DNA of 64,000 nt from Diplonema papillatum (lineage: Eukaryota > Euglenozoa > Diplonemea > Diplonemida > Diplonemidae), in the NCBI GenBank assembly GCA_030068145.1, contig JAPJBO010000646.1, positions 62,001-126,000 of the forward strand, given 5' to 3'. A program made the position numbers and the translations under genes. Positions 1 to 55,724 of the stretch are shown piece by piece. Position 1 is the stretch's first letter; each line of letters starts with the position of its first letter. The notes under the pieces are model-generated. The model did no database searches. It was not told the DNA's origin and saw nothing but the letters and a program-made list of their open reading frames with translations.

Positions 1-2544
1 CTTCACCTGTTCCCTGAACTCTCGTACGGTCTCCCGAATCTCCTCGTTCTCCCTCCGTTGTTCGCTGAGCTCTCTCCTTATCTCCTTCATTTCCTCCAGG
101 CTGGCTTTGAGCCCCTCGTTTTCCTCCTTCAGGAGCCGCATTTCCTTCCGCATCTCTTCCATTTGCTCCCTCTGCCTCTCCACCTCCGCCCCATTCGTCG
201 TGTCCACTTCGCCCATCCCTGTGTCTCTCTCTCCTCTGCCGGTTAAGCACGCCGTCAGCTTTGTTGCGAGCCCCTCGAAGAGTCCCTTGAGCATTTCTTC
301 CATCGCCACCGTCGAACTCCCTGCACCCCCGGCCGCTCCCGGAGGGATGTTTCCCCAGCCCCCTCCTCTGTCGTTTTTTGCGCCGTCGTTTTTTGCTCCT
401 TCCCGCGCCTTGCTCCCCGGCTGCGCCGCACTCCCCAACACCGGAAACTCCTCTCTCCGAAACACCCTGCCCTGCCCCGTAGCGGGTTGGACCTCCTTCC
501 GCCCCGTCTCCCATTTTTTCATGAAAGACCGAGACCCGTCCCAGACCGACCCCCGCGCCACCCCGGCCGACATCGACTGACTCACGAGCCAAAGCTCCCC
601 CTGCACTTCGAGGTCCATTGCCGGCGGCGCTGTCAGTGCCTCGACCAGCCACACTGCTCTTCCTCTCCTGCTTTCTCTCGCCTCCCTTGCCTCTGCCTGC
701 CAACCCTGCTCCCCCAATGACCTCACGACCTCATCCGCCGTCATATCCAGAGGGGGCCCCTCGACCGTAAACTTCCTCGTCCTGCCCAGCGCTCTGCAAG
801 CCTCGTCCATCTTCCCCCTCTCCACACGCACTGCCACCTTCCCGTCCGCTCCCTTTCCGAGGCCCATCGTCGCAATACCTCCGCTCTTCAACACACCCGC
901 CATCTTCGACGCCTCCTCCTCAGAATCCACCCAAACCATTCCCAGGCGGCTCCTCTCCTTGTCCTCGTGCAAGGCCCTCACGAAGATCCCACTCTCCCCC
1001 GAGCTCTTCAACACCTTATCCGCCTCCGCCGGCGAGACGAAGCAGATGCCCTCAGCTGTCGAACCAACCAGCCTGAACCTGGTTAGCACCCGCTTGCAAT
1101 GCTTCGACATCCTGAGGTAGACCCCTTCTCGTGTCTCCCCCTCCCCCAACTTCGTTTGCACCACGACCTGGGCGCTCTCTCCCCGGCAGCTCCTCTTCGG
1201 CTCCTTTGCGTCGTAGAACGCCTCTAGAGGTGCCTGCGACGACACCCAAACTGACAGCGTCCTCGCCGTCCCCTCGCCCCTCCAGGTGATGCTCCGCTCC
1301 TCGGAGTGCTGCACGGGAACCGGGAATGTGGTCACCACTGCCGCCCGTGCGTTCTTCCGTGCGAAGGCGGTAGCGCCCAGCGCTTCGCCACGCCACACCA
1401 CTACTCCGGCCGCGTTCCGGTTGTAGTGTTCGGCCTCCCCCGTCTCTACCTTCCACTCCGCTCCGCGCAGGCAGCCTATTGGAAGACGCCGCGTCGGCCT
1501 TTCCGGTCCGCTGTTGTTCGTCCTCAGGGGGAGCCCCACGTTCAATTGGGGCGTAACCTGCGCCACGTGTACCGGCGCCGCCATCCCTTCCTCCCTCCAA
1601 CGCACAGCCCTGTAGTGCGACCCGGTGTAACTGAGCTTGATGTCTCGCTCGTCCAGCACCAGGTCGCCTATCTTCCCCGTCTCTCCTGGCCACAGCACTG
1701 TCGCGCGCATGGTGTCGTCGGGCGCCAGCTCGAACACCACCACCCGTCGCCCGACTTCCCACGCCAGCGCCTGCAGCGTGAGGTGGTCGCCCCACGTTCC
1801 AAGGCGCGCCATCCTCGCCAGGTACTGCTTGGCGCAGCCTTCGACCCGGCCGGTGATGTCTCTGGCGGCCAAAGACTCCACCGCCAGCCTCCTCAGCTGG
1901 GCGTGGTGAGCCGCCGTCCCGTGTATCGCGTACGATACCGCACGAAACTGACAGTCGCCCTGTGCCCCCGCGTCCCGCTCCTCCAGACCGAACATGTCGA
2001 GTCTTTCCTCCAGATTCCTCTTCCGCGTCTCGCGTTGCCCGCCCTTGCACGCTGCCTCCACCGCTCTTTCCCGCACCTTCCCATCCACATCGCCCTCTGT
2101 CCGGGGCATCTCCACGCGCGTCTTGCGCCTGGCTTCCCCGAGCAGCTGCTGCGCGCGCCTCGTCCTTCTCAGCAGCCTGTGCGGGCACGCCACCTGCCGC
2201 AAGATCCAGAGTCTAACTCTGTCCATCCCGCCCACCAGCTTCACCGCGCCTCCCGGTGTCACCCTCTCCAGCGCCACGCAGGCCGCTTCCAGCTCCGCCT
2301 CTTCCATGTCGAGGCAGTCGACAGCTTCTTCAAAGGTCCACGACTCGTGGTCCTTCTTTCCTTCGGCGATGACGGCGATGCCAATCTTGCCGTCTTCGTT
2401 TTTCGCCGCGCCGTATCGAACCACGGCCGACCCGTCCCCTCCCGCACCCGGATACCAGGCTGACGCCCTCTCAGCCACCACCGGAGTGGTGCCCAGGATC
2501 CGCCACTTGGAGGCGGGGCGTCTCGACCGGAGAACACTCTTCAT
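1..2544 (-). CDS. OTU cysteine protease-containing retroelement-like ORF, open at the left edge
   Basis: Read on the minus strand from ATG at 2544-2542, this frame has no stop for 848 codons and runs off the window, so its C-terminus is unseen. Residues about 190-315 form an OTU deubiquitinase-like domain: GDCQFRAVSY with the nucleophile Cys198 (codon 1953-1951), WGDHLTLQAL starting at Trp251, and SHYRAVRW with the catalytic His310 (1617-1615). The Cys-to-His spacing of 112 residues is normal for OTU proteases. A basic segment precedes the domain. Near residue 590 there is a Gly-Pro-Pro patch that could be a degenerate RRM-like fold, and the last 70 or so visible residues are a charged coiled coil. 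OTU proteases are known in some non-LTR retrotransposons (Dualen/RandI type), so I infer the N-terminal part of a retroelement polyprotein, with any endonuclease or RT beyond base 1. A host deubiquitinase is the alternative. Confidence 0.7.
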   Translation of the reverse strand, partial: MKSVLRSRRPASKWRILGTTPVVAERASAWYPGAGGDGSAVVRYGAAKNEDGKIGIAVIAEGKKDHESWTFEEAVDCLDMEEAELEAACVALERVTPGGAVKLVGGMDRVRLWILRQVACPHRLLRRTRRAQQLLGEARRKTRVEMPRTEGDVDGKVRERAVEAACKGGQRETRKRNLEERLDMFGLEERDAGAQGDCQFRAVSYAIHGTAAHHAQLRRLAVESLAARDITGRVEGCAKQYLARMARLGTWGDHLTLQALAWEVGRRVVVFELAPDDTMRATVLWPGETGKIGDLVLDERDIKLSYTGSHYRAVRWREEGMAAPVHVAQVTPQLNVGLPLRTNNSGPERPTRRLPIGCLRGAEWKVETGEAEHYNRNAAGVVVWRGEALGATAFARKNARAAVVTTFPVPVQHSEERSITWRGEGTARTLSVWVSSQAPLEAFYDAKEPKRSCRGESAQVVVQTKLGEGETREGVYLRMSKHCKRVLTRFRLVGSTAEGICFVSPAEADKVLKSSGESGIFVRALHEDKERSRLGMVWVDSEEEASKMAGVLKSGGIATMGLGKGADGKVAVRVERGKMDEACRALGRTRKFTVEGPPLDMTADEVVRSLGEQGWQAEAREARESRRGRAVWLVEALTAPPAMDLEVQGELWLVSQSMSAGVARGSVWDGSRSFMKKWETGRKEVQPATGQGRVFRREEFPVLGSAAQPGSKAREGAKNDGAKNDRGGGWGNIPPGAAGGAGSSTVAMEEMLKGLFEGLATKLTACLTGRGERDTGMGEVDTTNGAEVERQREQMEEMRKEMRLLKEENEGLKASLEEMKEIRRELSEQRRENEEIRETVREFREQVK

Positions 2545-2567
2545 TTTGTTTATTTTGTTGATAATGT
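2545..2567. other. 23-bp junction between two divergent ORFs
   Basis: Only 23 A/T-rich bases separate the minus-strand OTU start codon from the plus-strand USP frame. The plus frame has a TAA at 2562-2564, just before it opens. The spacer is too short for two ordinary promoters, so it is either a very compact bidirectional start region or the breakpoint of an inverted insertion. Confidence 0.6.
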
Positions 2568-4544
2568 GTGTTGAATCCCTGCGTAGGGGATGCAACTTTC
2601 CTTGGCATACGGATACGACATGAGGTCTCCGGCGCGTCTGGAAGGCGATACATGCGACTGTCGGTCTTGGACAAGGCGAAAGCCTACCCGTACCGCCCCC
2701 TCGCGTACACGTCAGTCCTGTCTACGGCCCCGTCAAACTTCGGTTCGAGCATCCTCATTGGGGCCCTCGTTCGCAACGGTAGGATCGCCAACAACATATA
2801 TGATTTCAAGACCGAAATGAACAACACGGTCTTGAAACTCATGCGGCGTGGTTACCGGAAAAGCGTTTTGAAGAGTGGATTCCGCAAATGGCTCCTGGAC
2901 ACATACCCAGAGGCCAAATTTGGCGAGCATTGCGGGAAGGTGCGGAGGCACTTCTTCTGGCTCATTCACGAGGTGGAACGCACTCTATCACTGCCAGAGC
3001 CGGCCGCGATGGACCTTGCGATCGAGCGCCTTCTGGCTGAAAGACCCTTCGTGAAATACAATGGCCGCCCCCAACCTGTCCCGGAAGCTGAAGATGACGC
3101 CCCCCGATCACCGCCCACCGAAGCACCGACCCGACAGGCTGACACGACCGCCCCCCGTGAGTCCACGCGGAAAGGCCACAAGCGAAAGGCTGAAGAGGAC
3201 GAACAACGGGCTTCAAAGCGACGCCGCTCGAATGTCCACAAACCGGTTCTAACAGTTGCCCCTCCATCCACGTGCTACCGATCAGACGTTTGTACACACC
3301 CGCCTTCCGTGAGGCATGATCCGACGCTGTTTGGCCCCGCCGGCCTCCCGAATCTGGGGAACACGTGCTTCTTTGGTGCGGTGCTGCAGCTCCTGCTACG
3401 GGTTGGGCCGATCAGAGAGATGTACTGGAGCCTTGCGCAGGACCTCCCCAACTGCCGTGGATTTCTCGGGGACTTCCTGGCTTACTTTGCCATGCTGTCA
3501 AGCTCTCGCGACAGTGGTGACCAGCGTAGCCGGGATTGTCGGAGAATGGGTGTCCAAGCCATCCTGAGCATGTTCGCAAACTTCTGCGATGCACGGCAGC
3601 ACGATGCGCACGAAGCTCTGGTAGCGATACTCAGCGCGACTAGTGCGACGCTGGGTCCGGACGAAACGGGGACCCCCTGCCCGGGCTACCAACTCTTCGT
3701 AACATGCTTGGAGAACGGCTGGACCAGCTCAGTACGATGCAGTGCATGTGGACGCACTTCTTCCAGCAGTCAGGTAATGCAATGTTTGCAAATTCCTTGC
3801 GGAAGGAAGCTGGAAGACTCTCTCCACGTGCACGGGTTTGTGAATCCGGAGAGAGTATGCGACTGCAAGGCTGTAGGTACGGTGGTTGAAAGCATGGATC
3901 TCCGTCTGACAGCTGAATGTGTTCTGATGCAGTTTGGCATCTACACGAGAAACGGTGCCAGGCGCCAGAATGACGTGAAACTGCCCCCCTTCTTCGGACC
4001 GCCGGACCATCTGCTACGCCTCGCGGCCGTCGTGGTGCACATGGGGGAGGATACGGCTAGCGGGCACTACGTCACGTACGTTGCGCAAGACACGGGGTGG
4101 ATCCTCTTCGACGACCTGCACGTCACCTCTGTCGACGACATTCCGTGGGGTGACGTTTACCTCGCGGCCTTTGTCCGGATCCCCCGGAATGCCCACGACA
4201 TGACTGTCCGTGCCCCGTCACCCTCCATGGTGCTTCCCACTCAGGATCGGCTACCCGACTTGCCTGCACCCCCAGGTTCAGCCGGTAATTTGATGAGCCG
4301 GCAGTCGGAAGGATCACCTGACTCCTTCTGCCCCTTTGGTAATTCGCCACCCTGCCCGCCCTTGCCGGACTCCCAATGTCTGACACCGCATGGTCAGTTG
4401 TTTGAACAGCAGTTAACAGGTTCCCCGGTGCTGCGATGTCAACACTGCTCCGTCGAATGCACGAAGGATGGCCAGACGTTCCAAGGTCTGAGGGGACTCC
4501 GCGCGCATGAGAGACGTTGCCACCTCGCGGGTGTGAGATTCTGA
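2568..4544 (+). CDS. RT-associated C-terminal domain fused to a USP-type deubiquitinase
   Basis: The frame is open from 2565. The first ATG is at 2652, and no upstream ATG exists before the TAA at 2562, so the ORF looks 5'-truncated. Residues about 10-130 resemble the region that follows the RT in some retroelements: FLGIRI, then DKAKAYPYRP, GALVR and RRGYRKSVL. A proline- and lysine-rich linker follows. Residues about 258-545 are a USP/UCH protease: the Cys box GLPNLGNTCFFGAVLQ with Cys267 (3366-3368), a QHDAHE motif, a CxxC zinc pair, and the His box ASGHYVTYV with His500 (4065-4067) followed by ILFDD. The C-terminus carries a C2H2-like finger (CQHC ... HERRCH, from about residue 624). The predicted activity is removal of ubiquitin from proteins. 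Catalytic residues are intact over 658 codons, which argues for recent constraint. A host USP gene that captured retroelement sequence is the alternative. Confidence 0.72.
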   Translation: MLNPCVGDATFLGIRIRHEVSGASGRRYMRLSVLDKAKAYPYRPLAYTSVLSTAPSNFGSSILIGALVRNGRIANNIYDFKTEMNNTVLKLMRRGYRKSVLKSGFRKWLLDTYPEAKFGEHCGKVRRHFFWLIHEVERTLSLPEPAAMDLAIERLLAERPFVKYNGRPQPVPEAEDDAPRSPPTEAPTRQADTTAPRESTRKGHKRKAEEDEQRASKRRRSNVHKPVLTVAPPSTCYRSDVCTHPPSVRHDPTLFGPAGLPNLGNTCFFGAVLQLLLRVGPIREMYWSLAQDLPNCRGFLGDFLAYFAMLSSSRDSGDQRSRDCRRMGVQAILSMFANFCDARQHDAHEALVAILSATSATLGPDETGTPCPGYQLFVTCLENGWTSSVRCSACGRTSSSSQVMQCLQIPCGRKLEDSLHVHGFVNPERVCDCKAVGTVVESMDLRLTAECVLMQFGIYTRNGARRQNDVKLPPFFGPPDHLLRLAAVVVHMGEDTASGHYVTYVAQDTGWILFDDLHVTSVDDIPWGDVYLAAFVRIPRNAHDMTVRAPSPSMVLPTQDRLPDLPAPPGSAGNLMSRQSEGSPDSFCPFGNSPPCPPLPDSQCLTPHGQLFEQQLTGSPVLRCQHCSVECTKDGQTFQGLRGLRAHERRCHLAGVRF

Positions 4545-4699
4545 TCCGCGTCGTTTGAGCCTCATCGGATTCTTGATTGCTGGCTGGTCTATATTTCACT
4601 CCGCACCCGTTTACCCTGACTAACGGGAAAAACTCGAAGTGTCTGTACGAGTGAACGCACACTAACATGAGAGGATGAAGGCACGTATATGCCGCCTGG

Positions 4700-5060
4700 C
4701 CCTGTGCTAGGCGTAGTTTGAGGTTGTACTTATTTCCGAACAACCTACCACGAGCTTATCCACCCACACCCCCATTTTTCCCCTTTCTTTTTATTTACTT
4801 TTTCCCGCCCGATGTCGCTGATGACTAACGGACCGTCGGACCCGTCCCAACGGGGGTGCTTATGGAAGCTGCAATGAAGGCTTAGACCGGTACGGGCTAC
4901 ATGGCAACCCCTGCTCAACATGTAGAACGTGGGGGGCCCTTGATCACATTCATTACGGGTGTGGTCGTGGTGTCGGTCGCAATAGTCGCTTTGCTAGCCA
5001 AAGAGAGAGATAGAGAGAAAAAGAGCGCCAGAGAGAAAAGAAAAGATAACGTTATCTTCC
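4700..5060. repeat. Dispersed repeat family R1, copy 1
   Basis: This stretch shares blocks such as TACGGGCTACATGGCAACCC, GCTCAACATGTA and GCTAGCCAAAGAGAG with copies at 30495-30880, 36853-37170, 37180-37500, 41753-41885 and 46112-46172. It follows the USP ORF in the way copy 36853-37170 follows a LINE ORF, so it could be a retroelement 3' end or a separate short element. The flank 5061-5597 holds a poly-C run (about 5208-5226) and AT-rich sequence and no convincing gene. Confidence 0.6.
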
Positions 5061-5462
5061 GGAAAAGAAGGGTTACGCGAACCCCCGAAAAAATAATTAC
5101 CCCCCAAAAAAAATATACAGAAAAAAATAAAAACACAAACCGACGGTGACCCCCAAAACCTTTTTCAACCTTTCCAACACCCTTCAAGCTAAACCATTAT
5201 ACAACGACCCCCCCCCCCCCCCCCCCTTCGAAGTTGTGTGTTTGTTTCCTGTGTTCTTGCTGCTGGTCTCCGCAACCGCAATGACCAAGTTCGCAACGAC
5301 TGTTATGTGCAAGAATAGAAATACTAAGAATACGAAGCAATACTAAGGATACTGAGTATTTTCATTGGAAAACGTTCACCCGCACCCCACCCGCACCCCA
5401 GACGGACTCACCCCGATTCCGTGTAAGTCCGTGTGGGAGTATTTTTAGTCCGTGTAAGTCGG

Positions 5463-5490
5463 GCGGAATGCGGCGGACTGCATAGTATGA
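5463..5490. repeat. 28-bp motif shared with 11701-11728
   Basis: A GC-rich block containing GCGGAATGCGGCGGACTGCA followed by TAGTATG occurs here and again beside the YR-element repeat at 11701-11728. Both are followed by AT-rich sequence. It is probably the edge of a further dispersed repeat. Confidence 0.5.
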
Positions 5491-5597
5491 TAAAACACAA
5501 TAAAATTAAATACAATTAAATACAGAATAAAAAACAGACCCTGTAGGCTACAGTGCAGCTGCCTTGATGTTTTTGACATGTCTTTGACTCTAAATGA

Positions 5598-5707
5598 TCA
5601 CTGATTCTCGAGGTCTACATCGACGACTTTTGCCTTGGCTTCAGCCTGCTGTTCCTCGCGCTTCTTCGTTTCCTCGGCAGCTTTGTTTTCCCGGTCAATA
5701 TCGGCAA
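5598..5707 (-). CDS. Possible terminal exon of a minus-strand gene
   Basis: On the minus strand a pyrimidine-rich stretch ending TTAG (acceptor at 5709-5708) precedes a 35-codon frame rich in Glu, Lys and Ala that ends VDVDLENQ and a TGA at 5600-5598. The composition suggests a charged coiled-coil tail. Upstream exons were not identified; the frame also stays open upstream of the acceptor to 5879. Function unknown. 5715-6370 otherwise shows no clear gene. Confidence 0.3.
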
Positions 5708-6370
5708 CTAACCCGGTTGAAAGGAGTGGGAGTCCACGTTCACTTACGTGGGGAGTTGTAGAGTACGGAAGGAACCGGAAATCTCCGGAAAACAGGTACC
5801 CGCGTTCCAACTCGTCTCGAGTCGACGACCGTATGCAGGTGGTAGAGGCCCTGGGACTGCGAAGGCGTGACCACCCCATAAGGAGGACTCTCTATCTTTG
5901 CGTTATCTCTCTGTCCCAGTCGCCATAGCAACCTTATCCTCGGCCAAACATCATCCTGCAATCCTGCTTTCAGGATGGCCATCATGCCTCTCATTTTGGT
6001 TATCAACTTTACTCTCGCTCGAATTGCCGTCTTCGACCGTCACTGCCCCTGGTCCTGGTGGTTAGGGTTAGCACTGTGGCGATAATCTGCATCTGCTCTC
6101 TTTCGTGACTACCTCTTCGTGCCACCTCTCTTCGCCACTGGTACCTTATCTTGCACCGCTACCCGCCGCGGAGTGCACGTCTCTGTCTTCGATGATGGCG
6201 AGTCCTTACACCGCAAAGGAAATACCCGAAACTCCCTGAATTTCCCCGAGTTTCCCGATACTTCCCGATATTTTCGTCTGGACCAGGTGGATACAGGCAA
6301 GATAAAGACATGTCAAACTACAGGCAAATGGGATTCCAAATACAGACTTGTATTAAATACAAATTCTCCA

Positions 6371-6567
6371 GAATAATAAGCATTTATTCGGCCGAATAAA
6401 TATCGTTTATTTCACCGAGGGGTCGTTTTTAGTCCCGAGGGAGGGTTTTCAACCCCGAGCCCCGAGCGGGAGCGAGGGGCGAGGGGTTGAAACCCCTCCC
6501 GAGGGACTAAAAGCGACCCCGAGGTGAAATAAACGGTATTTATGGCCGAATAAATGATTTTATTCTG
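6371..6567. repeat. Foldback (inverted-repeat) element
   Basis: Arms of about 85 bp at 6371-6456 and 6484-6567 are imperfect reverse complements separated by a GC-rich loop. The arms contain TTTATTTCACCGAGGGGTCG and its complement. The right half recurs at 15722-15830. No coding capacity; a MITE-like foldback element is the best label. Confidence 0.7.
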
Positions 6568-6576
6568 CAAAATAAA

Positions 6577-6690
6577 CGCCCGAGACTCAAAAGAAACACC
6601 CCCATCATCCGGCAACCGCCCGAGACTCAAAAGAAACAACCCCATCATCCAGCAACCGCCCGAGACTCAAAAGAAACACCTCCAATAAAC
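6577..6690. repeat. 40-bp tandem repeat
   Basis: A unit beginning CGCCCGAGACTCAAAAGAAA is repeated about two and a half times, directly right of the foldback element. The same unit follows the second copy of that element at 15838-15945, so the two travel together. Confidence 0.7.
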
Positions 6691-7307
6691 GCCTCCTCCC
6701 ACAGGCGCGAATCGACGTGCTTGACGCCCGCCCTGCGGGCTTTTCTCCACACTCTCATCTCCTCCGTGCTCGGCTGGCCGCAGGTGTCCCGCTTCTCTCC
6801 CAGCCGCACCAGCTCCTCGAGTCTTCTGCAGGAGCCGAGTCTCGCCCTCGTGTCCCGGTCATCCGCATCCGCCTCTCCGTCAACTTGCCTCGCCGCAGGG
6901 CTGCGCACGCACTCTCCCGCCTGCTGCCCTCTCCCGACGTATTGGCGCGGCTTCTCCAGTAGCCCTCCACTCCTCTCCAGCAGGTACTGTTCTGCAGCAT
7001 CGCACACCGTCTTCCATTTCGCGTCGACCCCCTGCGCGGCTCGATACCGGTGTGCAGCTTCCTTGGCCCATTTCTCCGCCATGCCGAATTCTTCCTCGGG
7101 GTCCATCGCGCTCCAATCGAGCCTTGATTGCGCTGTTGCATTCCTTCCAGTCACAAGGATGGCGTGTGTTGGGTCATTTGGATTTCCGCTTGTCAGCATT
7201 GAAATCACTGATCCGGCTGGTGTAGCATATTGGTAGGTTGCTCCTTGTCTTTGCCTAAGTCCCATACATAGACTCGCTCCACACACAATAGTGGCGACCG
7301 GAGGCAT
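6645..7307 (-). pseudogene. LINE fragment (endonuclease-RT linker-like ORF)
   Basis: A 220-codon minus-strand frame. Its middle has charged helices and a segment RRLEELVRLGEKR followed by WRKARRAG, typical of the linker between endonuclease and RT in non-LTR retrotransposons. No endonuclease or RT motif is present. The last 15 or so codons read into the neighbouring 40-bp tandem repeat, so the ORF is truncated by that repeat. Identification rests on general pattern only. Confidence 0.4.
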
Positions 7308-8631
7308 CCTCCTTAACTCGGCGCGTTGCGCCCTACGAAAAACAGCTGGCTAGGCAGTTTTCGTTTCTTGTGCAATGCTTGCAGTTCTTTCGGGGTTCCC
7401 CTGGTGTATTGCGACGGCCGAGTAGCATGCCCAATTCATTCGCCTGTCATCGTGCCAACATGGCCATGTACATCCGTGCCTCAGCCACAGCTCCATCGCA
7501 CCGGGGGGCTGTCCTCACCGTCGAATATAACAGCTATTTGACACGCGCCGTTTTCTTTGTTATGTGCTCTTGTTTGGCACATAATTGGGGGGATGCAACA
7601 TGGAACTAAAGTGTGTCGCGTCAATTTGGGAAGCAAGTGCGCGGTAGAAATGAACGTGTACCGCAAGCGGTGAAGTCGATGCAGGTGCCGCATCCATTTC
7701 GCATCGCATCCAGTTTGTTTCGATGCAGGTAGCATCCGTTTCGCATCCAGTCTGATGATCTTTCATGCCTGGCTGAGGAAGACAAGAGACCCAGGCGTTG
7801 CTCATCGATTCTGCTGCTTCTCACGCTCATCGAAGCTGCTGCCCGGTTGCATGCCGACTGTGGATTCTCCGTCGTCATTTCAACTCGCTGCGTTCAAGAC
7901 GTCCGGCGTTGCCCTGGGCGTATTTTGTCCTCAAGCAATGTCTGTTCATCTGTGGGTACTTCTCGGACAAAGCAAAATGTCGATGTGTCGAGCTGCAGCG
8001 TAGTGCGAGACACCTGCATGATTCCTACAGGTAAGGTAGGAAGACAAGACTCACCCTTTCCACCCTTGTGCCTCCTCGGCGCAGCGTCCCACCTTGCCGT
8101 CCGCCTCCGCTGCTCTACAAGGACACCAGGTACCTGTGGGAGTGGTCGGTACAGTTTTCTCCCACCCCGCTTGTCTGCTGAAAGCTGTTTCTAAACTCAG
8201 AATTCAGAAGCGAGGACAAGACGATGATGAATCAATCACCTAATCCTTGAAATCTGACCTTGCTGAAGAAGCTAAGATATGCATGCAACCCACTGACTTG
8301 CGCGAAGCATGCTTCAAGTCGCAGCTTTTAGACGTGAACACAGCACGATGATGGATCAATACCTAATCCTTGGAATCTGCCTTGCGGAAGCTAATTCACT
8401 ACTGCTAATCCATTGCAGATGGCACTCGAACTCAGGCGCCCTCGTGAATTGGGACAGTCCGGATGCGTCTTTTCTTGAACCACGAAAATGAAACCGTTAC
8501 TTCGATAACTTTCACCGGCGTATTCTTACTTGACGAAGCCCAAAGAAAATAGGAGCATATTTTTCAGGTACCACCGTTTCCTCAGCCGATCACTGATCTG
8601 GTCCAGGAGCGTACGCAAGTGTTTCTTTTTT
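7308..8631. other. Non-coding stretch, no feature recognised
   Basis: Short frames occur on both strands without recognisable domains. Around 7675-7755 a motif GCATCC(G/A)TTTCGCATC is repeated a few times. Two similar sentences near 8225-8270 and 8345-8395 (both with CACCTAATCCTTGAAATCTG-like text) suggest a small duplication. Nothing else can be supported. Confidence 0.4.
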
Positions 8632-8635
8632 GGTG

Positions 8636-8805
8636 TAATTCCCTTATATCCCAACACTTGAAATTTTGTTCCCTTATATCCCAATGGGATTACCTTGGGC
8701 AAGGCAATCCCATTGGGATATAAGGGAACAAAATTTGTTGGTTGGGATATAAGGGAACAAAATTTGTTGTCCCATTGGGATATAAGGGAACAAAATTTGT
8801 TGACC
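8636..8805. repeat. Left inverted terminus of the foldback element
   Basis: It contains CCCTTATATCCCA on one strand twice, a central GATTACCTTGGGCAAGGCAATC palindrome-like core, and three reversed copies ending AAAATTTGTTG. The reverse complement of this order is found at 10523-10718. Confidence 0.75.
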
Positions 8806-8835
8806 ACAGAACCTGGCCACCAGTCAGTCCGACCA

Positions 8836-9015
8836 GCCTGGACAGACCTGGACAGCCTGGACAGCCTGGACAGCCTGGACAGCCTGGACAGCCTGGACAG
8901 CCTGGACAGCCTGGACAGCCTGGACAGCCTGGACAGCCTGGACAGCCTGGACAGCCTGGACAGCCTGGACAGCCTGGACAACCTGGACAGCCTGGACAGC
9001 CTGGACAGCCTGGAC
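8836..9015. repeat. 9-bp minisatellite (CCTGGACAG)n
   Basis: About 20 near-perfect copies of CCTGGACAG, followed to about 9226 by degenerate versions. Because the unit is a multiple of three, frames through it look like collagen-like Pro-Gly-Gln or Leu-Asp-Ser repeats, which I treat as artefacts. Confidence 0.9.
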
Positions 9016-9493
9016 TGACCAGACAGTCCGACCAGCCTGGACAAACCAGACAGCCTGGACAGCCTGACCAGACCAGTCAGTCCGACCAGCCCGGACTGAC
9101 CAGACAGCCCGGACAGCCTGGACAGACCAGACAGTCCGACAAGCTTGGCAGGCTGGAGGCTGGAGCCTGACCAGTCTAGTCCGGCTGACCCAGAGTCCGA
9201 CCAGCCTGGACTGCCTGACCAGACCAAGCCCTGGCGGTTGGTGCTGCAAGATCAACAGGAAGGGTGGGTCTTCTAGGTCCTTGGTTTCTTTCAATGGGAA
9301 GAACGGGAACAAAATTAGTTACCCAATGAACAGATGCAGAACCTGTCCTGCTGTAGGAAGGTACAAGGTTGTTAAAAGTCCACACGAATCACAGGAGGTA
9401 GAACATGATTCATGGATTAAGTTTGAAAGTACGAATCACAGGACGTGGAACATGATTCGTAGGACCGCTGAGCACAAAGTTACCAAGTTTTCA

Positions 9494-12712: not shown

Positions 12713-12864
12713 AGGCTTCCTACTGTGGGGATGAGGACACTGGGACGGGAAACTGGAGGCGGGGCTGGCGGGGCGTGAGCCGCGAGTTCCGTTCTTCCGT
12801 TTCACGCCTCGGGAGACCGCGGAAAGAGGAGCCTCTGCTTCAGCGGCAGGAGCTCTCTTTGGTG

Positions 12865-13701
12865 ATGGGGGACGCGAGGGAGCTGATGCAGGCGGCTCTC
12901 GCTCCTTCGACTTGGCGGGGTATGGAATCTGTTCACCGCAGGTTCCTGCAGTTTCGGCGCATGCTCGACGTTCTGTCACCGACGGAGACGCCGACTGCGT
13001 TGCTGCTGTTCATCGCGAGGCTGTTGCGTCGGGGGGACATTTCGATTCCGTCTGCCCTGACCTACGTCAACTCGTTGGTGTCAGCGGAACGCCGCGTTGG
13101 CAACGATCTTCAGGGATCGATCGTCATAAAGGACCTCCGTCGGGCTTTGCGGCGTTTAGGTGCGAACAAACCGGCGAAACAGGCGGTTCCGGCGACGAGC
13201 GCCGAGGTTCACGCTGTTGTGGGTCGGTCGACGGATCGGGCAGTGGCGATGGCCGTCCTGGTGGCATGGAGGTCGGGAGCGAGAGTAGGCGACGTAGTTC
13301 GTCTGCGCCCTCAGGACGTGACGTTCACTCCGGGGGGTGCGAAGATCTCATGGTGGATCACGAAGTCGGATCCATTTCACATGGGGGCCCTGTCGGCGAT
13401 AGCCCTGTCGGCGCGGGAGACGGCGGAGCTGAGGGCGATGGCGGGGTGTGCAAGAGAGAAGCTCTTTCCGACGACCTTCGGAAGCGTGGGACGGGCGCTG
13501 CGTCGGGAGAATCCGGAGCTGTCGTGCCATTCCCTGCGAAGGGGCGCGTTAACGGAGCTACTGCGGGGAGGAGTGGGCCTCAACGAGATTCGGCAGTTTT
13601 CGGGCCACTCATCGGAGTCGGCCCTGCTCCGGTATCTTCCGATGGCGGAGTTGAGCCATGTGCGAGAACTCCTCCAGATCTCGCAGAGGCTGTGCTGCTG
13701 A
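12865..13701 (+). CDS. Tyrosine recombinase of a DIRS-like retrotransposon
   Basis: The frame is open from 12163, but ATG 12865 is the best start because homology begins just after it. The N-terminal half is the helical core-binding domain (STWRGMESVHRRFLQFRRML). The catalytic half shows Arg I in AWRSGARVGDVVRL, a Lys after the beta hairpin (WWITKSD), HxxR as CHSLRRGALTELL, a GHS motif (QFSGHSSES) and the nucleophile Tyr in LLRYLP. All catalytic residues appear present. In DIRS-type retrotransposons this enzyme inserts a circular cDNA without target-site duplication. The gene overlaps the RT ORF that follows. Length about 278 codons is typical. Confidence 0.85.
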   Translation: MGDARELMQAALAPSTWRGMESVHRRFLQFRRMLDVLSPTETPTALLLFIARLLRRGDISIPSALTYVNSLVSAERRVGNDLQGSIVIKDLRRALRRLGANKPAKQAVPATSAEVHAVVGRSTDRAVAMAVLVAWRSGARVGDVVRLRPQDVTFTPGGAKISWWITKSDPFHMGALSAIALSARETAELRAMAGCAREKLFPTTFGSVGRALRRENPELSCHSLRRGALTELLRGGVGLNEIRQFSGHSSESALLRYLPMAELSHVRELLQISQRLCC

Positions 13702-15467
13702 GGCGGCCGGCTTTTCCGCAGGGCTGGCTGCGGCGGGCGAGGCGTGCTGTTCCCCTATTCGCCTTCTGGACGGATTACGTTGGAGACGACGTGCTGGAGG
13801 CGCCGGAGCCGGATCGCGAGGCGGATGAAGGATGCATATGGCAGGAAGGGTACTCGGGTCCCGAGTGGGCCCTTCCGGTGGACGGAAAGAAGCCTTCAGT
13901 TGTACCTTGCTACGACGGCGAGATCGCCCCGATCTCATCGAATTCAATCGACCTTGCCTTTGTGGAAGAGTTGGATGAGACGGGCGAGCTGGCGCGTTTG
14001 CTGCAGGTAATCGGATCGGTGGAGGTCTTTCGGTCTTTGTTGAAGCCGGAATGGGAGGATCAGCCGGGGAGGCTCCGTTCGACGTCTCGTAGGATGTTGC
14101 GACATGCCAGCGTGCTCCAGGCGTGTGGCCTGCTGCAGCCGACCAGCCTTCGGGAAGCCCAATTCGTGTTGCCGGTGTTTACCGTACCGAAATCGTCTGG
14201 GGGGTTGCGCGTAATAGTTGATGGGCGAAAGATCAACGACGTGTTTGCGCCTCCGCCTCCGATGGGCCTTCCGCGCTTGGAGGACGCAGTGGCTGCGCTC
14301 CTGTCGTGGAAGTGGGTGATCTCATGCGATGCACGGTCCTTTTTCTTCCAAATACCGATGGACCGAGCTGTGTCGCAGTTCTTCTGCGTGAATCTTGCAG
14401 CGTCCCGGGGTGGTTTTGAATCCTTTGTCCTACGCAAGCTTCCAATGGGCTGGTCTTGGGCACCTGCGATCGCGCAACGCATCGCGACTGTGCTGGCGCA
14501 TCAGGTCCAAGGTTTTGCGTGGGTGGATAATTTTTTCTTTGGCGCGGAGACAGAGGAGGCGTGCTGGGCGAAGGCTCGAGCGTTCAGAGCGCTGATCGAG
14601 AAGGCTCGGCTGGAGGTGAAGGAAGACCTGGTGCCGACGCAGAGGCTGAAGGCGCTGGGCATGGAGTTCGATCTCACGGAAGGCTCGGTGAGAATGGATC
14701 CGGCGTGGGTGAAGACGCTTGACCTTTCGTGGTTCGAAAGAGGACCGCGCATAACAGCGCGCACCGTGTTTGGTTGGCTCGGAAGGATCGCATGGCGGTG
14801 TTTCGCGATGAAGAGGAGACTCTGCGCACGGCAAGGTTTGATGGACGTTGCCCGTCGTCTGGCGGGTAGGATCGGAGTTCGGTACGAGCTCTGGGATAAC
14901 TGCGTGGAGCTGTCCCTGAAGGAAATCGGGGAGCTCGAGCGGGAGGTTCTGGAGATTCGAGCGAATTACTGGTTTCGTCCGGTTAGACCGTGCCGCGAGT
15001 GGATAGTGGGTTGGAGCGATGCTTCGGACGACATGTGGGCCGTGGCTCTCGAGGTGGGACCTGGTGTGGTGAAGGCAGGATTTTTTCACCATCTCGAGGG
15101 TATCTTCTCGAAGGAACTGCTTGCGGTAGTCAGGGCCGTCGAATTGGCGATCGAGGTCAGGGGTTCGGGAATCGGAATCGACATGATGGTCGATAACATG
15201 GGTGTAGTCCTGGCGATTCTGAAGGGCCACTGTCGACTCTTCGTGGGAAACGTGCTCCTTTCAAAGTTGTTTAAATTGCTGGAGGGACACGGGGCCACGT
15301 TGAGAGTCAGATGGGTGCCAACCCATTTGCAGGCGGCGGACCCATACACGCGAGGCTTACACCCGTCGAATACCCTTGTCGTCCCGCAGTCTACAATTGA
15401 CGAGCTCGCTAATCTGCGGGGGCCCTTAGGGACCCTAATCCCGTTCGTGAGAAAAAGCGAAGAATAA
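12912..15467 (+). CDS. Reverse transcriptase-RNase H of a DIRS-like retrotransposon
   Basis: The frame opens at 12912, but its first 260 codons overlap the recombinase in another frame and look like shadow; RT homology starts near 13700, so expression may use an internal start or frameshifting. The RT has VLPVFTVPKSSGGLRVI, motif A CDARSFFFQIP, RKLPMGWSWAPAIAQ and, in place of the YxDD box, WVDN at 14520-14531. RNase H follows: WSDASDD, SKELLAVVRAVE, VDNMGVVLA and WVPTHLQAADPYTRG. The ORF is uninterrupted. Its stop lies inside the first block B of the terminal repeat. The Asn for the second catalytic Asp is shared with the element at 21-24 kb. Confidence 0.85.
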   Translation: MAGYGICSPQVPAVSAHARRSVTDGDADCVAAVHREAVASGGHFDSVCPDLRQLVGVSGTPRWQRSSGIDRHKGPPSGFAAFRCEQTGETGGSGDERRGSRCCGSVDGSGSGDGRPGGMEVGSESRRRSSSAPSGRDVHSGGCEDLMVDHEVGSISHGGPVGDSPVGAGDGGAEGDGGVCKREALSDDLRKRGTGAASGESGAVVPFPAKGRVNGATAGRSGPQRDSAVFGPLIGVGPAPVSSDGGVEPCARTPPDLAEAVLLRRPAFPQGWLRRARRAVPLFAFWTDYVGDDVLEAPEPDREADEGCIWQEGYSGPEWALPVDGKKPSVVPCYDGEIAPISSNSIDLAFVEELDETGELARLLQVIGSVEVFRSLLKPEWEDQPGRLRSTSRRMLRHASVLQACGLLQPTSLREAQFVLPVFTVPKSSGGLRVIVDGRKINDVFAPPPPMGLPRLEDAVAALLSWKWVISCDARSFFFQIPMDRAVSQFFCVNLAASRGGFESFVLRKLPMGWSWAPAIAQRIATVLAHQVQGFAWVDNFFFGAETEEACWAKARAFRALIEKARLEVKEDLVPTQRLKALGMEFDLTEGSVRMDPAWVKTLDLSWFERGPRITARTVFGWLGRIAWRCFAMKRRLCARQGLMDVARRLAGRIGVRYELWDNCVELSLKEIGELEREVLEIRANYWFRPVRPCREWIVGWSDASDDMWAVALEVGPGVVKAGFFHHLEGIFSKELLAVVRAVELAIEVRGSGIGIDMMVDNMGVVLAILKGHCRLFVGNVLLSKLFKLLEGHGATLRVRWVPTHLQAADPYTRGLHPSNTLVVPQSTIDELANLRGPLGTLIPFVRKSEE

Positions 15468-20180: not shown

Positions 20181-23100
20181 GTATTTTCTTCGGGCTTCAG
20201 TTTTTTACATACCGAAAACAGTGCTCCCGCTTACCTCCGAAGTGCCGGAGGAAGCCTAAATCAGGAAAGGTATTTTTTTGTCGCGGTGTCGCGCTTTTTT
20301 TAGCAGTGTCTGTCAGTGCTCCCACGGTGAGCTGGAGTTAGAGATGGGTTGCTCCACCACAACCAAAATGCGCGTGAATCTGCACCACACGCGCTTTTTT
20401 CACTGTAGCTTTGACTCCAGCTTCTGAGATTGGATCGCACCGCCAACCCCGACATGTCGGAGGAAGCAAACACCAGCAATTTCATGCTGTTCGCTTGAGG
20501 TGCTGGCGAGCAACCCATAGGAAGCCGAGTAAACCTGCGCTTCGAAGACCCGACTCTGAACGAGAAAAACTTTCTCACTGAGGCCGGCAGCAAAAACTGA
20601 TAGAAGAAACCTTTAGCGTCATTCTCACAAACGAAGTTACCTCGCATGAGTTTCAGCAGCATTGAGTTGTACGAGGAGAGGTGGCATGGCGGAACCAGGT
20701 GTCCCGACATTCTCACCGCTTCATTCACACCCTTGCATGAGAGAATGAACCTGAGTACCCCGGCCTTCTTTTTTGCGATATTCAGTAACCACCTTAGTGA
20801 GCATACTTGTTACAGCTAAAAAGGAACGTTGGCAGCGGTTTAACCTGAACGCGCACAGGTCAAATCGCACAAACAAAAATTGGGCGCTCGTGCCGAAACA
20901 TATTTACTAAAATGTCCGTGGACCTGAAGACGTTCGACTGGGCTCCGGTGCCCATCCTTCAGGTGCGATGAGGATAGGAGGGACCTGTCAAGACGGCGGT
21001 TCTCGCCTTGGCCGAGCAAGTCCGCCTGCAGAACCGTCTCCTGTTGGAGCCCGCCGTGCCCTCGGACCCCATCGACCCTCGCCGAGTCATTACTTGGTTG
21101 GGTTACTTAGCTACTCCACAAGGGAGGCAGCTAGTGCTTACAGAGGTGAAGCAGCGGTACGGGTATAGCGAGATACCGGAAAGTCCGCACGAGAAGGCCA
21201 CCGCTATGGACCATGAACGCCGAGTCCACTTTAGCACCTTGGGGGCCCTGCTCGGTATGGCCGATGGTTCTCCCACTGTGCTCCGGGTCTTGCACCAGTT
21301 GGTGGTACGCCTCGAAGGGCTGCGGCTGCGGGCCTCACACGGGTTAGAGCACCAGGTGGCGTGGGAAACACGCTTTGCCCCTATGGAGCACGAACTTTTC
21401 TCGAGGACGGCTTTAGTCCTAGGAAACAAGCTCCTCGCGGAGCTCGCAAAAAAGGAGAGCAGGGAGAGGCTTCCTCCCGCCAAGAGGCCGAGGAATTGAA
21501 CCGCGGAGGGCGGATCGGCACTCCCAGAAGGCCTCTGGAAGGAAGCGATGGTCGAGGCCCGACCTCGCAAACAGGATTTTGCCGTCTCCGATCAAGATCG
21601 GTTGCGGAAGGACCGCCAGGCCCTTCTACAGACGATGCGGAGGTGCTACAAGAGCACTCCCGTCATGCTGTCTGTGATGAGTCGTGCGCAGAGGTACGCC
21701 GAGCAGGCTCGCTGCTTCGATCCCACTCTGTCGGACGAAGCGGCCTTCTTGATGTGGGTGAACCGCAAGCTGGCCTCGGGCCAAATCAAGGCCGACTCCG
21801 CCCTGCAGTACATGACGTACTTCCGGATGTCCCGAATCGACTGGCTCGGGGCGTACCGGCGCTCGGTCATGCTCGAGATGACCCAGTTCGAGGATCGTCG
21901 GTCTCGCGACGCCGGGAGGACGCCTACGAAGGAGGAGATCCTGCGGGTGGTCTCCCGCGAAAGCGGCGTGCTCTCGATGGCGCTGCGGCTCCAGTGGTCC
22001 ACAGCGTGCCGGTTCGTGGACTTGCAACGACTGAAGTTAGACCACATGTGGTCTGTGGGAGCGAACCAGGTCATGATCCTGTTCGTTGGAGGGAAGACAG
22101 ATCCTACCTCGAGAGGACAGGGTCTGCTAATTCCCCGGAGCGGTCCCTTCCTGACGAATTTCTGGCAGTGGATTGCGCTCCAAACCCAGGGTTTGGGCAC
22201 GAAGGAATGGGTGTTCCCCGGCCTGTCGCGACAGGCGTACAACAACTTTCTCCAGGAGAGGTTGGGGGTGCCCTCACATCGAGTCAGGCATGCGGCTCTG
22301 ACCCGGGTGGCCCAGGTGGAAGGCGAGCGGTCGGCGATGAACGTGGGTCGGCATCTGAACCCCCGCACCACCCGTCGTTACACTCCCCATCATCTCTGGC
22401 TGCCAGTTCAGGAGACGATTTCGGGCACGGCTGCCCTGCAGGCCGAGTGAGCTCGAGCCACTTAACCGATGTCCCGCCTAGACCTGGCCTGTGGCCTCGC
22501 CATCTGGATAAGGTCCTTCAGGGCTACGATTACGCCTCCGGGTGGCTTGATGCCAGCAGTGGCAAGCGGGTAACGAAGGCGTCGTACGAGGGCGAGATTG
22601 CTGCTACGGCACCGACGTTCGATCATGAGGCTCTGCTGCGCGACTTCCCCGCTCTTTGGGTTAACATGAAGTGGTTGCTAGATCCTGGGTTCATACAGAG
22701 CAGTCTCCAACCCGGTGTGGGTGTAGTCGGTCCCGGACCGAGAAATGTGCGGATGAAGCCTCACTTTGAACGCTTGATGGAGTTGGAGATTGTTGAGCCC
22801 ATTCCCAAGGCGGCTTCATCGCGCTGGCTTTCACTGGACAAGCGGGATCCAGGCCAGCTGCGCTTCATCCTGAGCTGTCAGTCGCTCAATCGAGCTACGG
22901 CGCACGTGCCTCTGCCATCCTGCGATCTGCCGAGTTACGCTACAGTAGTTACGACCGTTTTGTCCCGGAAGTGGGTTACAGAATTCGACTTCCGGTCGTT
23001 CTTTTTCCAGTTCTCTCTGCCACCAGAGGTGAGGAAGTATTTCTGTTTCAGAATTGACACACGGCTACTCTGGATGACACGTCTCCCCATGGGATATCGG

Positions 23101-26100
23101 GGCGCACCGCAGGCGGCTCAGGCGGTTTCACTGGCGCTGGGAAGGAACTCAGTCCAGGGTCTGGACGTTGATGTCTTGGCGTGGATTGACAACGTGTTCT
23201 TTGCTGGGGATACAGAGGCGAGTGTTGTTGAGGCATCGGCTCGATTCATGGCGTTGGTATCAAGGTACGGTTTTACGATCGGCCGATCCTCTGGGCCGGT
23301 ACAGAGAGCGACGAAGGTTACGCCCCTCATAGCGCAGATTGTTGCATTGCAGGAGGCGCCCGTGCGTATATGGTGGAAGCTCACCGGCTCGCTGTTGTGG
23401 CGTCGACACGTGATGGCTTTCCCGCTTCATGAGGTTCTCACTCTTTTGCGGTGGATGTCGGACCTGGCCTCGGGAAGTTCTTCATACGACAATTCGTTTT
23501 GGGATTCAGTATCCACTTGTCCGCCGTCGGTGAGGGAGGGCCTCGTGAGTCAATTTAACGAGCTGCAGGATAATGCTTGGCGGTGTTGGTCCTTACCGTC
23601 ATACTCCAACTCCCGTGACATGGTATGCGATGCCAGCATGTCAGCGTGGGCATTCGTCACTGAGGGTCAGTTCGCCTACGGGCCCTTTCCCGAGGAGCTG
23701 ATGGACGGTGACATTTTCTTGAAGGAGTTATACGCAGTAGTTCGGGCTGTCTGCTATGCAGTGCGGTGCAGCACCAACACCCGCATCAAGCTCCTCTGCG
23801 ACAACAAAGCTGTGATAGGGTGCGTGCGCCGTGGATACACCCTTCGACTGGAGGCCATGCGCTGGATCACGGTGATAAACTGGGTACTCTCCGTCTCCAG
23901 TAGCCGCCTGGACGTCCTATACGTCCCTTCAGAGCTAAATGCAGCTGACCAGTTCACGAGACTGGATTGATGTTTAGTGCTGACGATCAACAGACCGCTT
24001 TGTCGAGCCCTCGTCGAGCAGGGTTGATTCTTTCTCCGCGTGGCATACAGCTACCACGGTAGCAGTCAACGTTTTGAAACAGTCTTTTATCGGATACAAA
24101 TATTTTCCTTTATTTTTGAGGGAGGGAGGGGGGAACAAATAGGGGCCGCTCGTGCTCCGGTGCCTGTTCCTTTTTGCGATAACCAGTAACCACCTTAGTG
24201 AGCATACTTGTTACAGCTAAAAAGGAACGTTGGCAGCGGTTTAACCTGAACGCGCACAGGTCAAATCGCACAAACAAAAGGCGCCGTGGAACCAGGATCT
24301 TTTCCGCCTCCGACCGGGGAACCGCCTCACAGAGACCGATTTCCTCTAGTCTTTTAACGTGCTGTTCCAACTTTGGTGTTAGGGGGGGCCTGGGGCGTTC
24401 TTGAACTCGGTCGACAGGATATCCTCGAGGAAAGCGGGATTTCAAAACCAAGTTGATCTCTAAGGCAGGGAAGTCTCGTAGCAACAGGTCAGTGTCCACC
24501 CATGATTCAGTGATGCTGTCAACGAGGCCCTTGTGGCACGGGAGCCTCGGGGCATCTCGTGGTGCACCCACCTCCACCTCATGGCGTAATCGTATGTATG
24601 CAGTTTAGTTAAGCTGTGGGCCACATTGGGAGCCCAGAAGGGGCGGTCGAAACCTACTGCAGAATTCCGGCCCCCTGGATTGTCCCGCTCGTCGACTCCC
24701 AAGTCTCCATCGGGGTATAGAACCTCACGTTCTTCACGTCTACGTGAAGAACTTGTTCGCCACCCACCCGGGCGATCTTGGTGAGTGCACTGTGTCGAAT
24801 CATGTGACTGGTGATCCCAAGATGGTGTCTGAGCCACTGGGTGGCCAACCCTGTGGATTTCGCCAGCAGTCCAAGAACCTGGCTCTTGGAGACCAGTCCA
24901 GGAGTTGTAAATTTGTTGCATTAGTGTGTGGGCCTTTGAAGCGTGGATGATGCCTCTCGCGCTGCTCCCCTTGAGGTTCCTGGCTCATGCCAAAGCGCCG
25001 CCGCCCGGGTTAAGGGGTTGCGGCATCACTGCTGGATGAGTAGCTGAGCCCGAGTTACCACCAGGTGGTGTCTTCGTAGCACTCGGCCAGCGTTCCCAAC
25101 GTCTCCTGACGCAGCCCCTGGACAGCCTCGGGGCTGATCAGGTAGTCAGCCTTCTGGGGGCGGCCCCGACTCCGCTTCAGCGGTTGGAAAGGACTTGGTG
25201 CGAGGGGAGTCGTTCATACGGACTTCCGCCCGTTTCCCGACTTCGAGAGGGTTTCGGTCCTTCTCCTCTTGGAAAATTCACCTTCGGGGCTCTCTTGAGC
25301 CCGTCCGTGTTCCTCCTCCTCCTGTCCTCCTCGTTGGCCACCTCGACAGCTCGCAGGGCGTTTCTTAACACTGTGCGAGAGAACTCAGAGGCATCTACCA
25401 ACTGCAGCTTGGACTCCCAAGCCAGTTGTTGAGGCATACCCTGCAGCTTGCGGATTCTTAGGGCCTCGAGGCAAACCAGCAGTTGACGGGCAACCTGTAG
25501 GACTTGTCTCGAGTTCTTTGGCACACATGTCCAAGACAGAAAACAGGACACGGGTCTCGTGCACGTACGCAGGTACACTGGCCTTGAAGTCTTGTTCAAT
25601 GGGCCCGTATCGGTAGCGCACTTCGGTCATCATCTGACTCTTCTGGTTAGCGGTTGCAACCTTCGGTACCCACGAGTTTGCCATTCGTATGGCAAACTCT
25701 CCAATTCCCTCTTGGGGTTTGGTTTGGGCAAGAAGATGTTCCACGAGCGCCTTCAAGGGCCCTGGTGGTGTTTGTTCGAGCAATTCGTCGACGCCGGCGA
25801 TGTTCGAGTCCGGGTTCGGACGGCTCTCGAGTACTGCGTCCACGCCTTCCGTCTCCCGATCGTCCTCAGACCCACTCGTCTTCCCCCATTCGGTCCACGA
25901 AGCCCTGAGCAGTGCTCTTGCACCCTAGGTTTGCCTTCAGGCAATACGCGATCGCCGTGAGGCCGCATCTGAAGCAGTTCCCCGGCATGGCTCTTTGAGC
26001 ACATCGGGAAAATGCAAGCGCATCTTCCTCAGCTCGGTTAATTCCCGCGGGCACTGTCACCTTCGTCTGGTTCGAAGACCAGTCGAAAGAGCCCCCGTCG

Positions 26101-55509: not shown

Positions 55510-55724
55510 CTCGAGGGGCTGCCTTGTGCTTACTTCGAAGGAGGCTAGAGGGGGAGAAACAATACAACTACAAAATGGGTCTTTTTTGTTGAACGCTTAC
55601 GCCCGCCACTAAACCCAGATTTACCTGTGTTTCGTGTGGGCTACAGCACATTTACCTCCTTTGATCTTTTGCAACTGGCAGCCTCCTCAAGTATTTCCTA
55701 CAAAGCAGGTGCTTATACAAAAAA
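55510..55724 (-). repeat. Dispersed repeat R3, inverted copy
   Basis: Full reverse complement of 48296-48515. Flanked by two ATACCGTT(C/T)TGGGCA-like phrases that recur at 55455-55510 and 55735-55780. Confidence 0.85.

What the first reader, a model, noticed from the sequence alone, without database searches (positions are those of the whole stretch)
1..4544. Two different deubiquitinases (OTU and USP) back to back on retroelement-like ORFs
The sequence shows an OTU protease ORF (C198/H310, minus strand) and a USP ORF (C267/H500, plus strand) whose 5' ends are 23 bp apart, both with catalytic residues in place. OTU domains are known in some LINEs, but a USP on a retroelement-type ORF is not something I know of. 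Inference: either one element encodes OTU ... RT ... USP and was inserted with its 5' part inverted (as in LINE twin priming, which joins 5' ends head to head), or there are two elements or genes with a shared start region. A mobile element with two deubiquitinases would be new.
Basis: partly seen in the sequence, partly recalled or inferred. Interest (0 to 1): 0.85.

Follow-up and report, generated by a model that had tools for sequence, protein, structure and literature searches.

The report
Deubiquitinase-carrying jumping gene, interrupted by another
The two back-to-back ubiquitin-removing enzymes belong to two different jumping genes, one of which landed inside the other; the notable part is that the interrupted one, a young Penelope-like element with many copies in this genome, carries a USP-type deubiquitinase fused to its reverse transcriptase.

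Summary
Both ORFs are real: OTU (PF02338, Cys198/His310) and USP (PF00443 E 2e-21, Cys267/His500). They are not one element and not a twin-priming product. Left of base 1, on the same contig, the USP element resumes: an intact copy from elsewhere aligns to both sides of an 8.8-kb insertion in opposite orientation, bounded by a target duplication (15 bp, one mismatch). The insertion is a LINE: OTU in ORF1; AP endonuclease, RT and zf-RVT in ORF2. The interrupted element's 1585-aa ORF has an N-terminal GIY-YIG endonuclease, an RT-like part (RFIDDLL) and a C-terminal USP: the layout of a permuted Penelope-like element plus a USP. One search scored 67 USP-ORF matches (window copy included): 33 of 67 are 100% by rounded identity, 0 of 67 have stops in the matched part, 14 of 67 lie in a 1585-aa frame. 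The USP is under purifying selection (dN/dS 0.21, one pair of copies). 'One element, two deubiquitinases' is refuted; 'a USP on a retroelement ORF' is confirmed. The RT assignment rests on motifs read by eye; profiles and AlphaFold gave nothing. OTU-LINE copy number could not be obtained.

The parts
1..2544 (-). OTU-LINE ORF1, 888 aa from ATG at 2544; runs about 120 bp beyond base 1 into the contig; coiled-coil-like C-terminal part (by eye)
1621..1962 (-). OTU cysteine protease domain (PF02338 E 8e-5; Cys198, His310 of ORF1)
   Evidence: nearest solved structure OTUD3 4bou E 0.0037
2545..2579 (-). 5' UTR / 5' end of the OTU-LINE (28 nt by the blastn boundary, plus the 7 bases GAATCCC, which may be LINE or target)
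2580..2594 (.). right copy of the target-site duplication (TGCGTAGGGGATGCA); left copy TGCGTAGGGGATGCG at C646:55768-55782, outside the window
2573..5217 (+). 3' part of the Penelope-like element, 99.85% to L023:5993-8637; the rest of this copy lies at C646:55146-55782
2589..2990 (+). end of the RT (FLGIRI motif) and thumb-like region of the PLE ORF (read by eye)
   Evidence: PLE ORF; related fragment at 51009-51188 (-)
3342..4139 (+). USP (Peptidase C19 / UCH) domain; GNTC Cys267, SGHY His500, LFDD Asp
4437..4523 (+). C-terminal CxxC...HxxxxH-like zinc finger (read by eye; Pfam gives only Zn_SUZ12 at E 0.069, below cut-off)
4545..5217 (+). PLE 3' UTR and 3' end (ACAACGACCCCC)
6690..7118 (-). 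fragment of another OTU-LINE copy (ORF2), 99.5% at the nucleotide level

Best explanation
Shown: an 8.8-kb LINE (ORF1 with an OTU protease; ORF2 with AP endonuclease, RT and zf-RVT) inserted, in opposite orientation and with a target-site duplication, into the RT region of an already present, 5'-truncated copy of a second retroelement. Shown: the second element is multicopy, with near-identical copies, and about 7.5 kb long. Its single 1585-aa ORF reads GIY-YIG endonuclease, RT-like region with a DD motif, basic linker, USP deubiquitinase, zinc-finger-like end; copies end at one 3' end, start at different points, and in 9 of 17 readable cases have a C-homopolymer at the 5' side. Inferred from domain order and motifs: it is a Penelope-like element with permuted domains. 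Inferred, most likely mechanism: the element copies itself by target-primed reverse transcription, and the USP, fused in cis to the EN-RT protein, strips ubiquitin from that protein or its RNP (or from host proteins at the insertion site), which protects the complex from the host's ubiquitin-proteasome control. The OTU of the LINE would do a like job in an unrelated element of the same genome. The confidence given is for the nested insertion and an element-borne, working USP; the choice of substrate is much less sure and overlaps with the first mechanism among the rivals.
For: Nested insertion: L023:5378-6014 = C646:55146-55782 (100%) and L023:5993-8637 = C646:64573-67217 (99.85%); the intact target and both junctions show a 15-bp duplication with one mismatch; a second OTU-LINE copy at C646:43242-46637 has its own exact 15-bp duplication TGCAGCGTTATCGCG and the same 3' end. 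LINE: PF03372 3e-7, RVT_1 1.1e-16, zf-RVT 1.1e-3 (below its cut-off). PLE-type element: GIY-YIG E 1.6e-5, 25.6 bits against 22.6 on the fragment, USP E 1.5e-20 in the same ORF, RFIDDLL at aa 904. Multicopy and young: 67 scored matches, window copy included; 33 of 67 at 100% by rounded identity, 0 of 67 with stops in the matched part. Selection: dN/dS RT .054, USP .213, zinc finger .148, linker .308, USP-to-finger stretch .539, at dS .44-.74. USP Cys/His/Asp motifs intact in 30 of 30 loci that cover all three (24 of the 67 places). C-runs of 8 or more in 9 of 17 readable 5' flanks against 0.8% of window positions.
Against: No profile in Pfam, NCBIfam or PHROGs recognises the RT part, no solved structure matches it, and the AlphaFold model failed (pLDDT 29.4). 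The whole 1585-aa ORF scores GIY-YIG 22.4 bits, just under the 22.6 cut-off. No hammerhead or other Rfam match in L023, L028, L029 and no self-repeat within L023, though these occur in at least one canonical PLE. The USP has about four times the dN/dS of the RT, and dN/dS is one pair of copies. The duplication can also be read as 22 bp with 3 mismatches, or 15 bp with 1. Some of the 67 places may be duplicate contigs or haplotypes: L010 and L011 start at the same base with nearly the same 5' flank. Frames are broken upstream of the RT part in L031 (1 stop), L032 (2) and L006 (1). No activity was tested.
Confidence: 0.8

Rival explanations
1. One element encodes OTU...RT...USP and was inserted with its 5' part inverted (twin priming).
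For: Head-to-head 5' ends about 23 bp apart.
Against: The PLE resumes on the other side of the OTU-LINE with a target duplication; the OTU-LINE has its own EN-RT ORF and its own 3' end, seen again in a second copy; intact USP-element copies have GIY-YIG, not OTU, upstream.
Confidence: 0.01
2. The USP acts on chromatin or repair proteins at the insertion site (for example ubiquitinated H2A/H2B or PCNA), with the C-terminal zinc finger for targeting, rather than on the RT protein itself.
For: Zinc-finger-like end with dN/dS 0.148; Bao et al. 2010 (PMC2836005, passages read) suggest that transposon-encoded OTU and Ulp1 may act on ubiquitin-controlled DNA repair.
Against: No substrate data; nothing here separates this from cis-protection of the RT.
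Confidence: 0.3
3. The USP is a captured passenger domain without a role, carried because the element is young.
For: Higher dN/dS in the USP than in the RT (0.213 against 0.054); near-identical copies say little about constraint by themselves; a related thumb-like fragment in the window has no recognisable USP behind it.
Against: At dS about 0.6 the USP keeps its frame, its Cys/His/Asp motifs and dN/dS well under 1; motifs are intact also in the copies at about 95%, 92% and 85% nucleotide identity (L031, L032, L029).
Confidence: 0.12
4. The OTU and USP are host genes that share a promoter.
For: Divergent arrangement.
Against: The USP ORF has 67 scored matches and the OTU-LINE at least two further partial copies on this contig; the USP part is cut mid-ORF by the LINE.
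Confidence: 0.01

Closest known systems
Penelope-like elements with permuted domains (Craig et al. 2021; only its title seen, in the reference list of PMC11167929; that GIY-YIG is N-terminal there, the clade names Naiad/Chlamys and their insertion at simple repeats are recalled)
   Same: One ORF, GIY-YIG before the RT, RT-like motifs (RFIDDLL), 5' truncations, insertion next to a simple repeat
   Different: Carries a C-terminal USP deubiquitinase and zinc-finger-like end; many copies sit at C-homopolymers. The 2021 paper is not held, so an earlier description of a USP there is not excluded
Canonical Penelope/Poseidon elements (PMC11167929, passages read)
   Same: GIY-YIG plus RT in one ORF
   Different: There GIY-YIG is C-terminal and the element studied has pLTRs and a hammerhead ribozyme; here GIY-YIG is N-terminal, no hammerhead found, no self-repeat within L023
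Ulp1-bearing LINEs NeSL and Utopia-1_TSP (PMC4640811, passages read)
   Same: Retroelement ORF with a cysteine protease of the ubiquitin/SUMO-protease type
   Different: Ulp1-like domain at the N-terminus of a LINE with restriction-like endonuclease; here a USP at the C-terminus of a PLE-type ORF, and an OTU in ORF1 of an AP-endonuclease LINE
OTU or Ulp1 in Ginger1 transposons, OTU in Helitrons/Helentrons, Peptidase C19 with transposase_11 in a T. vaginalis protein (PMC2836005 and PMC4067079, passages read)
   Same: Deubiquitinase-like domain fused to or carried with the mobility protein, including one USP-type case
   Different: DNA transposons; here retroelements

Membership tests
Penelope-like element | GIY-YIG endonuclease in the same ORF as the RT | tested here: met
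   PF01541 25.6 bits over cut-off 22.6 on L023:3507-4583; whole ORF 22.4, just under
Penelope-like element | RT of the PLE/telomerase-like group | tested here: inconclusive
   Motifs read by eye (YLYGTLKLHK, DFTTMYD, GIPMGAN, RFIDDLL, FLGIRI; their meaning recalled); no Pfam, NCBIfam, PHROG or PDB match; AlphaFold failed; no RT tree could be made
Penelope-like element | Canonical order RT then GIY-YIG | tested here: not met
   GIY-YIG at aa 172-215, DD motif at aa 904: permuted order
Penelope-like element | pLTR or tandem arrangement | tested here: inconclusive
   No self-repeat within L023; but L029 holds a second partial copy behind the first, and L030 holds 3' pieces of another copy before the element, same strand
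Penelope-like element | Hammerhead ribozyme | tested here: not met
   No Rfam match up to E 1 in L023, L028, L029, L022
USP deubiquitinase (Peptidase C19) | UCH profile and Cys/His/Asp catalytic residues | tested here: met
   PF00443 E 1.5e-20; motifs in 30 of 30 loci that cover all three, 24 distinct places
USP deubiquitinase (Peptidase C19) | Ubiquitin hydrolase activity | not testable with these tools
   needs a biochemical assay
LINE (AP-endonuclease non-LTR retrotransposon), the OTU element | AP endonuclease, RT and zf-RVT in ORF2; target-site duplication; 5'-truncated copies | tested here: met
   zf-RVT is below its Pfam cut-off (20.0 against 27.5); truncated copies seen: one with duplication (C646:43242-46637), one short fragment (window 6690-7118)
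OTU protease | OTU profile and Cys/His | tested here: met
   PF02338 23.6 bits against 23.3; Cys198/His310; activity not tested

The most novel reading that the evidence does not exclude
Two unrelated retroelements in one genome, a Penelope-type element and a LINE, each acquired its own deubiquitinase (USP and OTU) fused to or encoded with its replication proteins, because this host restricts retroelements through ubiquitin. The USP-bearing Penelope element would be a new architecture that makes this testable.
Probability: 0.4. Interest if true: 0.8.

Novelty: new variant of a known kind. Interest (0 to 1): 0.62.

Why it matters
Cysteine proteases of the ubiquitin/SUMO-protease type recur on mobile elements, but their role is unsettled. 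A multicopy element with near-identical copies and an intact, selected USP in the same chain as its endonuclease and RT gives a clean test of whether retroelements fight ubiquitin-based control. That a LINE in the same genome carries an OTU suggests, if the OTU-LINE is also widespread (not counted here), that the pressure is general.

Tried and rejected
Twin priming, and my own extension of it (notes: several units ending in the shared 3' tail have an antisense retro-sequence upstream, hence perhaps two-template insertion): dropped for this locus once the two-sided match was found; the other two places were not tested. Reading the shared tail as a LINE tail: it is the 3' UTR of the USP element, with relatives elsewhere in the window.

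Searches without a result: viral contigs with the USP ORF, the tail and the OTU ORF (in 32, 25 stretches matched a pattern and none was confirmed), phages by tblastn, genome contigs with the USP ORF (66; 12 stretches matched a pattern, none confirmed), solved structures with the N-terminal part of the window ORF and with the RT part (38, 92), Rfam on the element (83), PHROGs. These collections hold few or no eukaryotes, so their silence says little. AlphaFold on RT plus USP with two sequences: pLDDT 29.4, not used (107). Genome-wide count of the OTU-LINE: asked, never answered; divergent PLE families and host USPs: not asked.

Literature: ten searches, listings seen. No paper on a USP-bearing retroelement showed in the listed titles and abstract starts; some searches listed only part of what they found, and the library lacks most subscription papers, among them Craig et al. 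2021. Passages only were read of PMC4067079, PMC2836005, PMC4640811, PMC11167929 and PMC6875170 (in the last, OTU means operational taxonomic unit).

Full report
Observation. The minus ORF contains an OTU domain (PF02338 E 8e-5, just over the curated cut-off) and the plus ORF a USP domain (PF00443 E 2e-21). The coding signal changes strand near 2550-2700. The best solved-structure matches are USP12, USP36 and USP46 for the plus ORF and OTUD3 for the minus ORF (E 0.0037).

Where the window lies. It is G000:C646:62001-126000, in a 271-Mb, 2910-contig assembly with no name given. It is eukaryotic by its content: for example a COG3 coding stretch at 27801-29246 and a eukaryotic LSU rRNA fragment.

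The USP ORF is the end of a much longer one. The genome search scored 67 matches out of 1308 first-look candidates, the window copy included. By the rounded table 33 of 67 are 100% identical and 10 of 67 form a 78% subfamily; 0 of 67 have stops in the matched part; 14 of 67 lie in an open frame of exactly 1585 aa and 4 of 67 in one of 1590 aa. The tool calls such counts lower bounds; on the other hand some places may be duplicate contigs or haplotypes (L010 and L011 start at the same base with nearly the same 5' flank). The six 1585-aa copies fetched whole (L023-L028) have no stops and are 99.9-100% identical at the protein level. The protein has a GIY-YIG endonuclease at aa 172-215 (25.6 bits on the fragment), an RT-like part with RFIDDLL at aa 904, a basic linker, the USP at 1186-1451, and a zinc-finger-like end. 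No library profile and no solved structure recognises the RT part, and the AlphaFold model was useless (pLDDT 29.4). The RT reading therefore rests on motif order and on my recalled knowledge of Penelope-type RTs.

The element as a mobile element. Most compared copies end at ACAACGACCCCC or ACAACGGCCCCC (in L008, L010, L012 and L032 the match stops earlier, at the contig end or inside the 3' UTR) and start at different points. The longest shared stretch, L023 with L028, begins at L023:1181, beside a C-run in L023, so full length is at least about 7.46 kb with a 5' leader of about 2 kb. Of 18 places examined, one (L004, contig start) had no 5' flank and was dropped; 9 of the other 17 have a run of 8 or more C within 30 bases, against 0.8% of window positions on the same strand. 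Two of the 9, L010 and L011, may be one insertion.

The join. Intact copy L023 matches contig C646 in two pieces: 5378-6014 at 55146-55782 (100%) and 5993-8637 at 64573-67217 (99.85%). Between them lies an element in the opposite orientation. The intact target holds TGCGTAGGGGATGCG; it is present left of the insertion and, with one change, right of it; a 22-bp reading with 3 mismatches is also possible. The inserted element has a 28-nt leader (plus perhaps 7 nt), ORF1 of 888 aa with the OTU, ORF2 with AP endonuclease, RT and zf-RVT, tandem repeats in the first part of the ORF2 frame, and the 3' end GATCGACTTATA. A 5'-truncated copy at C646:43242-46637 ends at the same point and has its own exact 15-bp duplication; a short piece lies at window 6690-7118. 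Of the 32 loci held, OTU-LINE sequence occurs only in the 3 that come from contig C646; the other 29 (23 distinct places of the 67) have none at E 1e-10. The remaining places were not fetched.

Selection. One 1585-aa copy (L023) against one 1590-aa copy (L029): dN/dS is 0.357 for aa 1-165, 0.162 for GIY-YIG, 0.065 for aa 276-480, 0.054 for the RT part, 0.308 for the linker, 0.213 for the USP, 0.539 between USP and zinc finger, 0.148 for the zinc finger, 0.154 overall, with dS 0.32-0.74. The USP is thus constrained, though less than the RT. The GNTC, SGHY/F and LFDD motifs are intact in 30 of 30 loci that cover all three (24 distinct places). L031 (1 stop), L032 (2) and L006 (1) have broken frames upstream of or early in the RT part.

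Mechanism. Shown: multicopy spread, shared 3' end, 5' truncation, in-frame fusion, constraint. Inferred: target-primed reverse transcription, and a USP working in cis on the element's protein or on ubiquitinated host proteins at the insertion site. Bao et al. 2010 (PMC2836005, passages) made a similar proposal for DNA transposons and noted a Peptidase C19 together with a transposase domain in Trichomonas; Ulp1-like proteases are known on NeSL and Utopia-1_TSP LINEs (PMC4640811, passages) and OTU on Helentrons (PMC4067079, passages).

Verdict. The 'two deubiquitinases on one element' reading is wrong: it is a LINE inserted into another retroelement. The underlying surprise, a USP on a retroelement ORF, is real: it belongs to a multicopy Penelope-type element, and an OTU-bearing LINE coexists in the same genome. 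No such element showed in the ten literature searches named in Tried and rejected, but the key PLE paper was not readable here.

Noticed in passing
window 30190-30348 (-): Fragment of eukaryotic LSU rRNA (RF02543, 94 bits) in antisense upstream of a PLE-type 3' tail (30480-30890).
   Followed up: partly
window 31735-34652 (-) and 34518-36836 (+): Two LINE fragments (about 48% aa identity in the zf-RVT region) head to head; the minus one is 44% identical to the OTU-LINE ORF2 around the RT. The plus one is followed by PLE-type 3' tails at 36840-37500.
   Followed up: partly
window 51009-51188 (-): Decayed 60-aa piece 38% identical to the PLE thumb-like region: probably a second, older PLE-type family, with no USP recognisable by eye behind it.
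   Followed up: partly
window 12735-15464 (+) and 21235-23967 (+): Two ~910-aa frames with RVT_1 hits and RNase-H-like ends, DIRS/Ngaro-like by eye.
   Followed up: no
C646:54104-55003 and C646:67490-68346 (window 5490-6346): Direct repeats of 85-88% identity on both sides of the PLE+LINE block; unexplained.
   Followed up: no
L021:4612-8913 (-): A further LINE frame of 1434 aa with endonuclease and RVT_1 hits, left of the window.
   Followed up: no
window 27801-29246 (+): COG3 (conserved oligomeric Golgi subunit 3) C-terminal domain, E 1.3e-47: probably a host gene between the mobile elements.
   Followed up: no
window 8775-9197, 58233-58530, 58915-59242, 61034-61800: Tandem arrays with units of 9, 12, 13 and 13 bp.
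   Followed up: no
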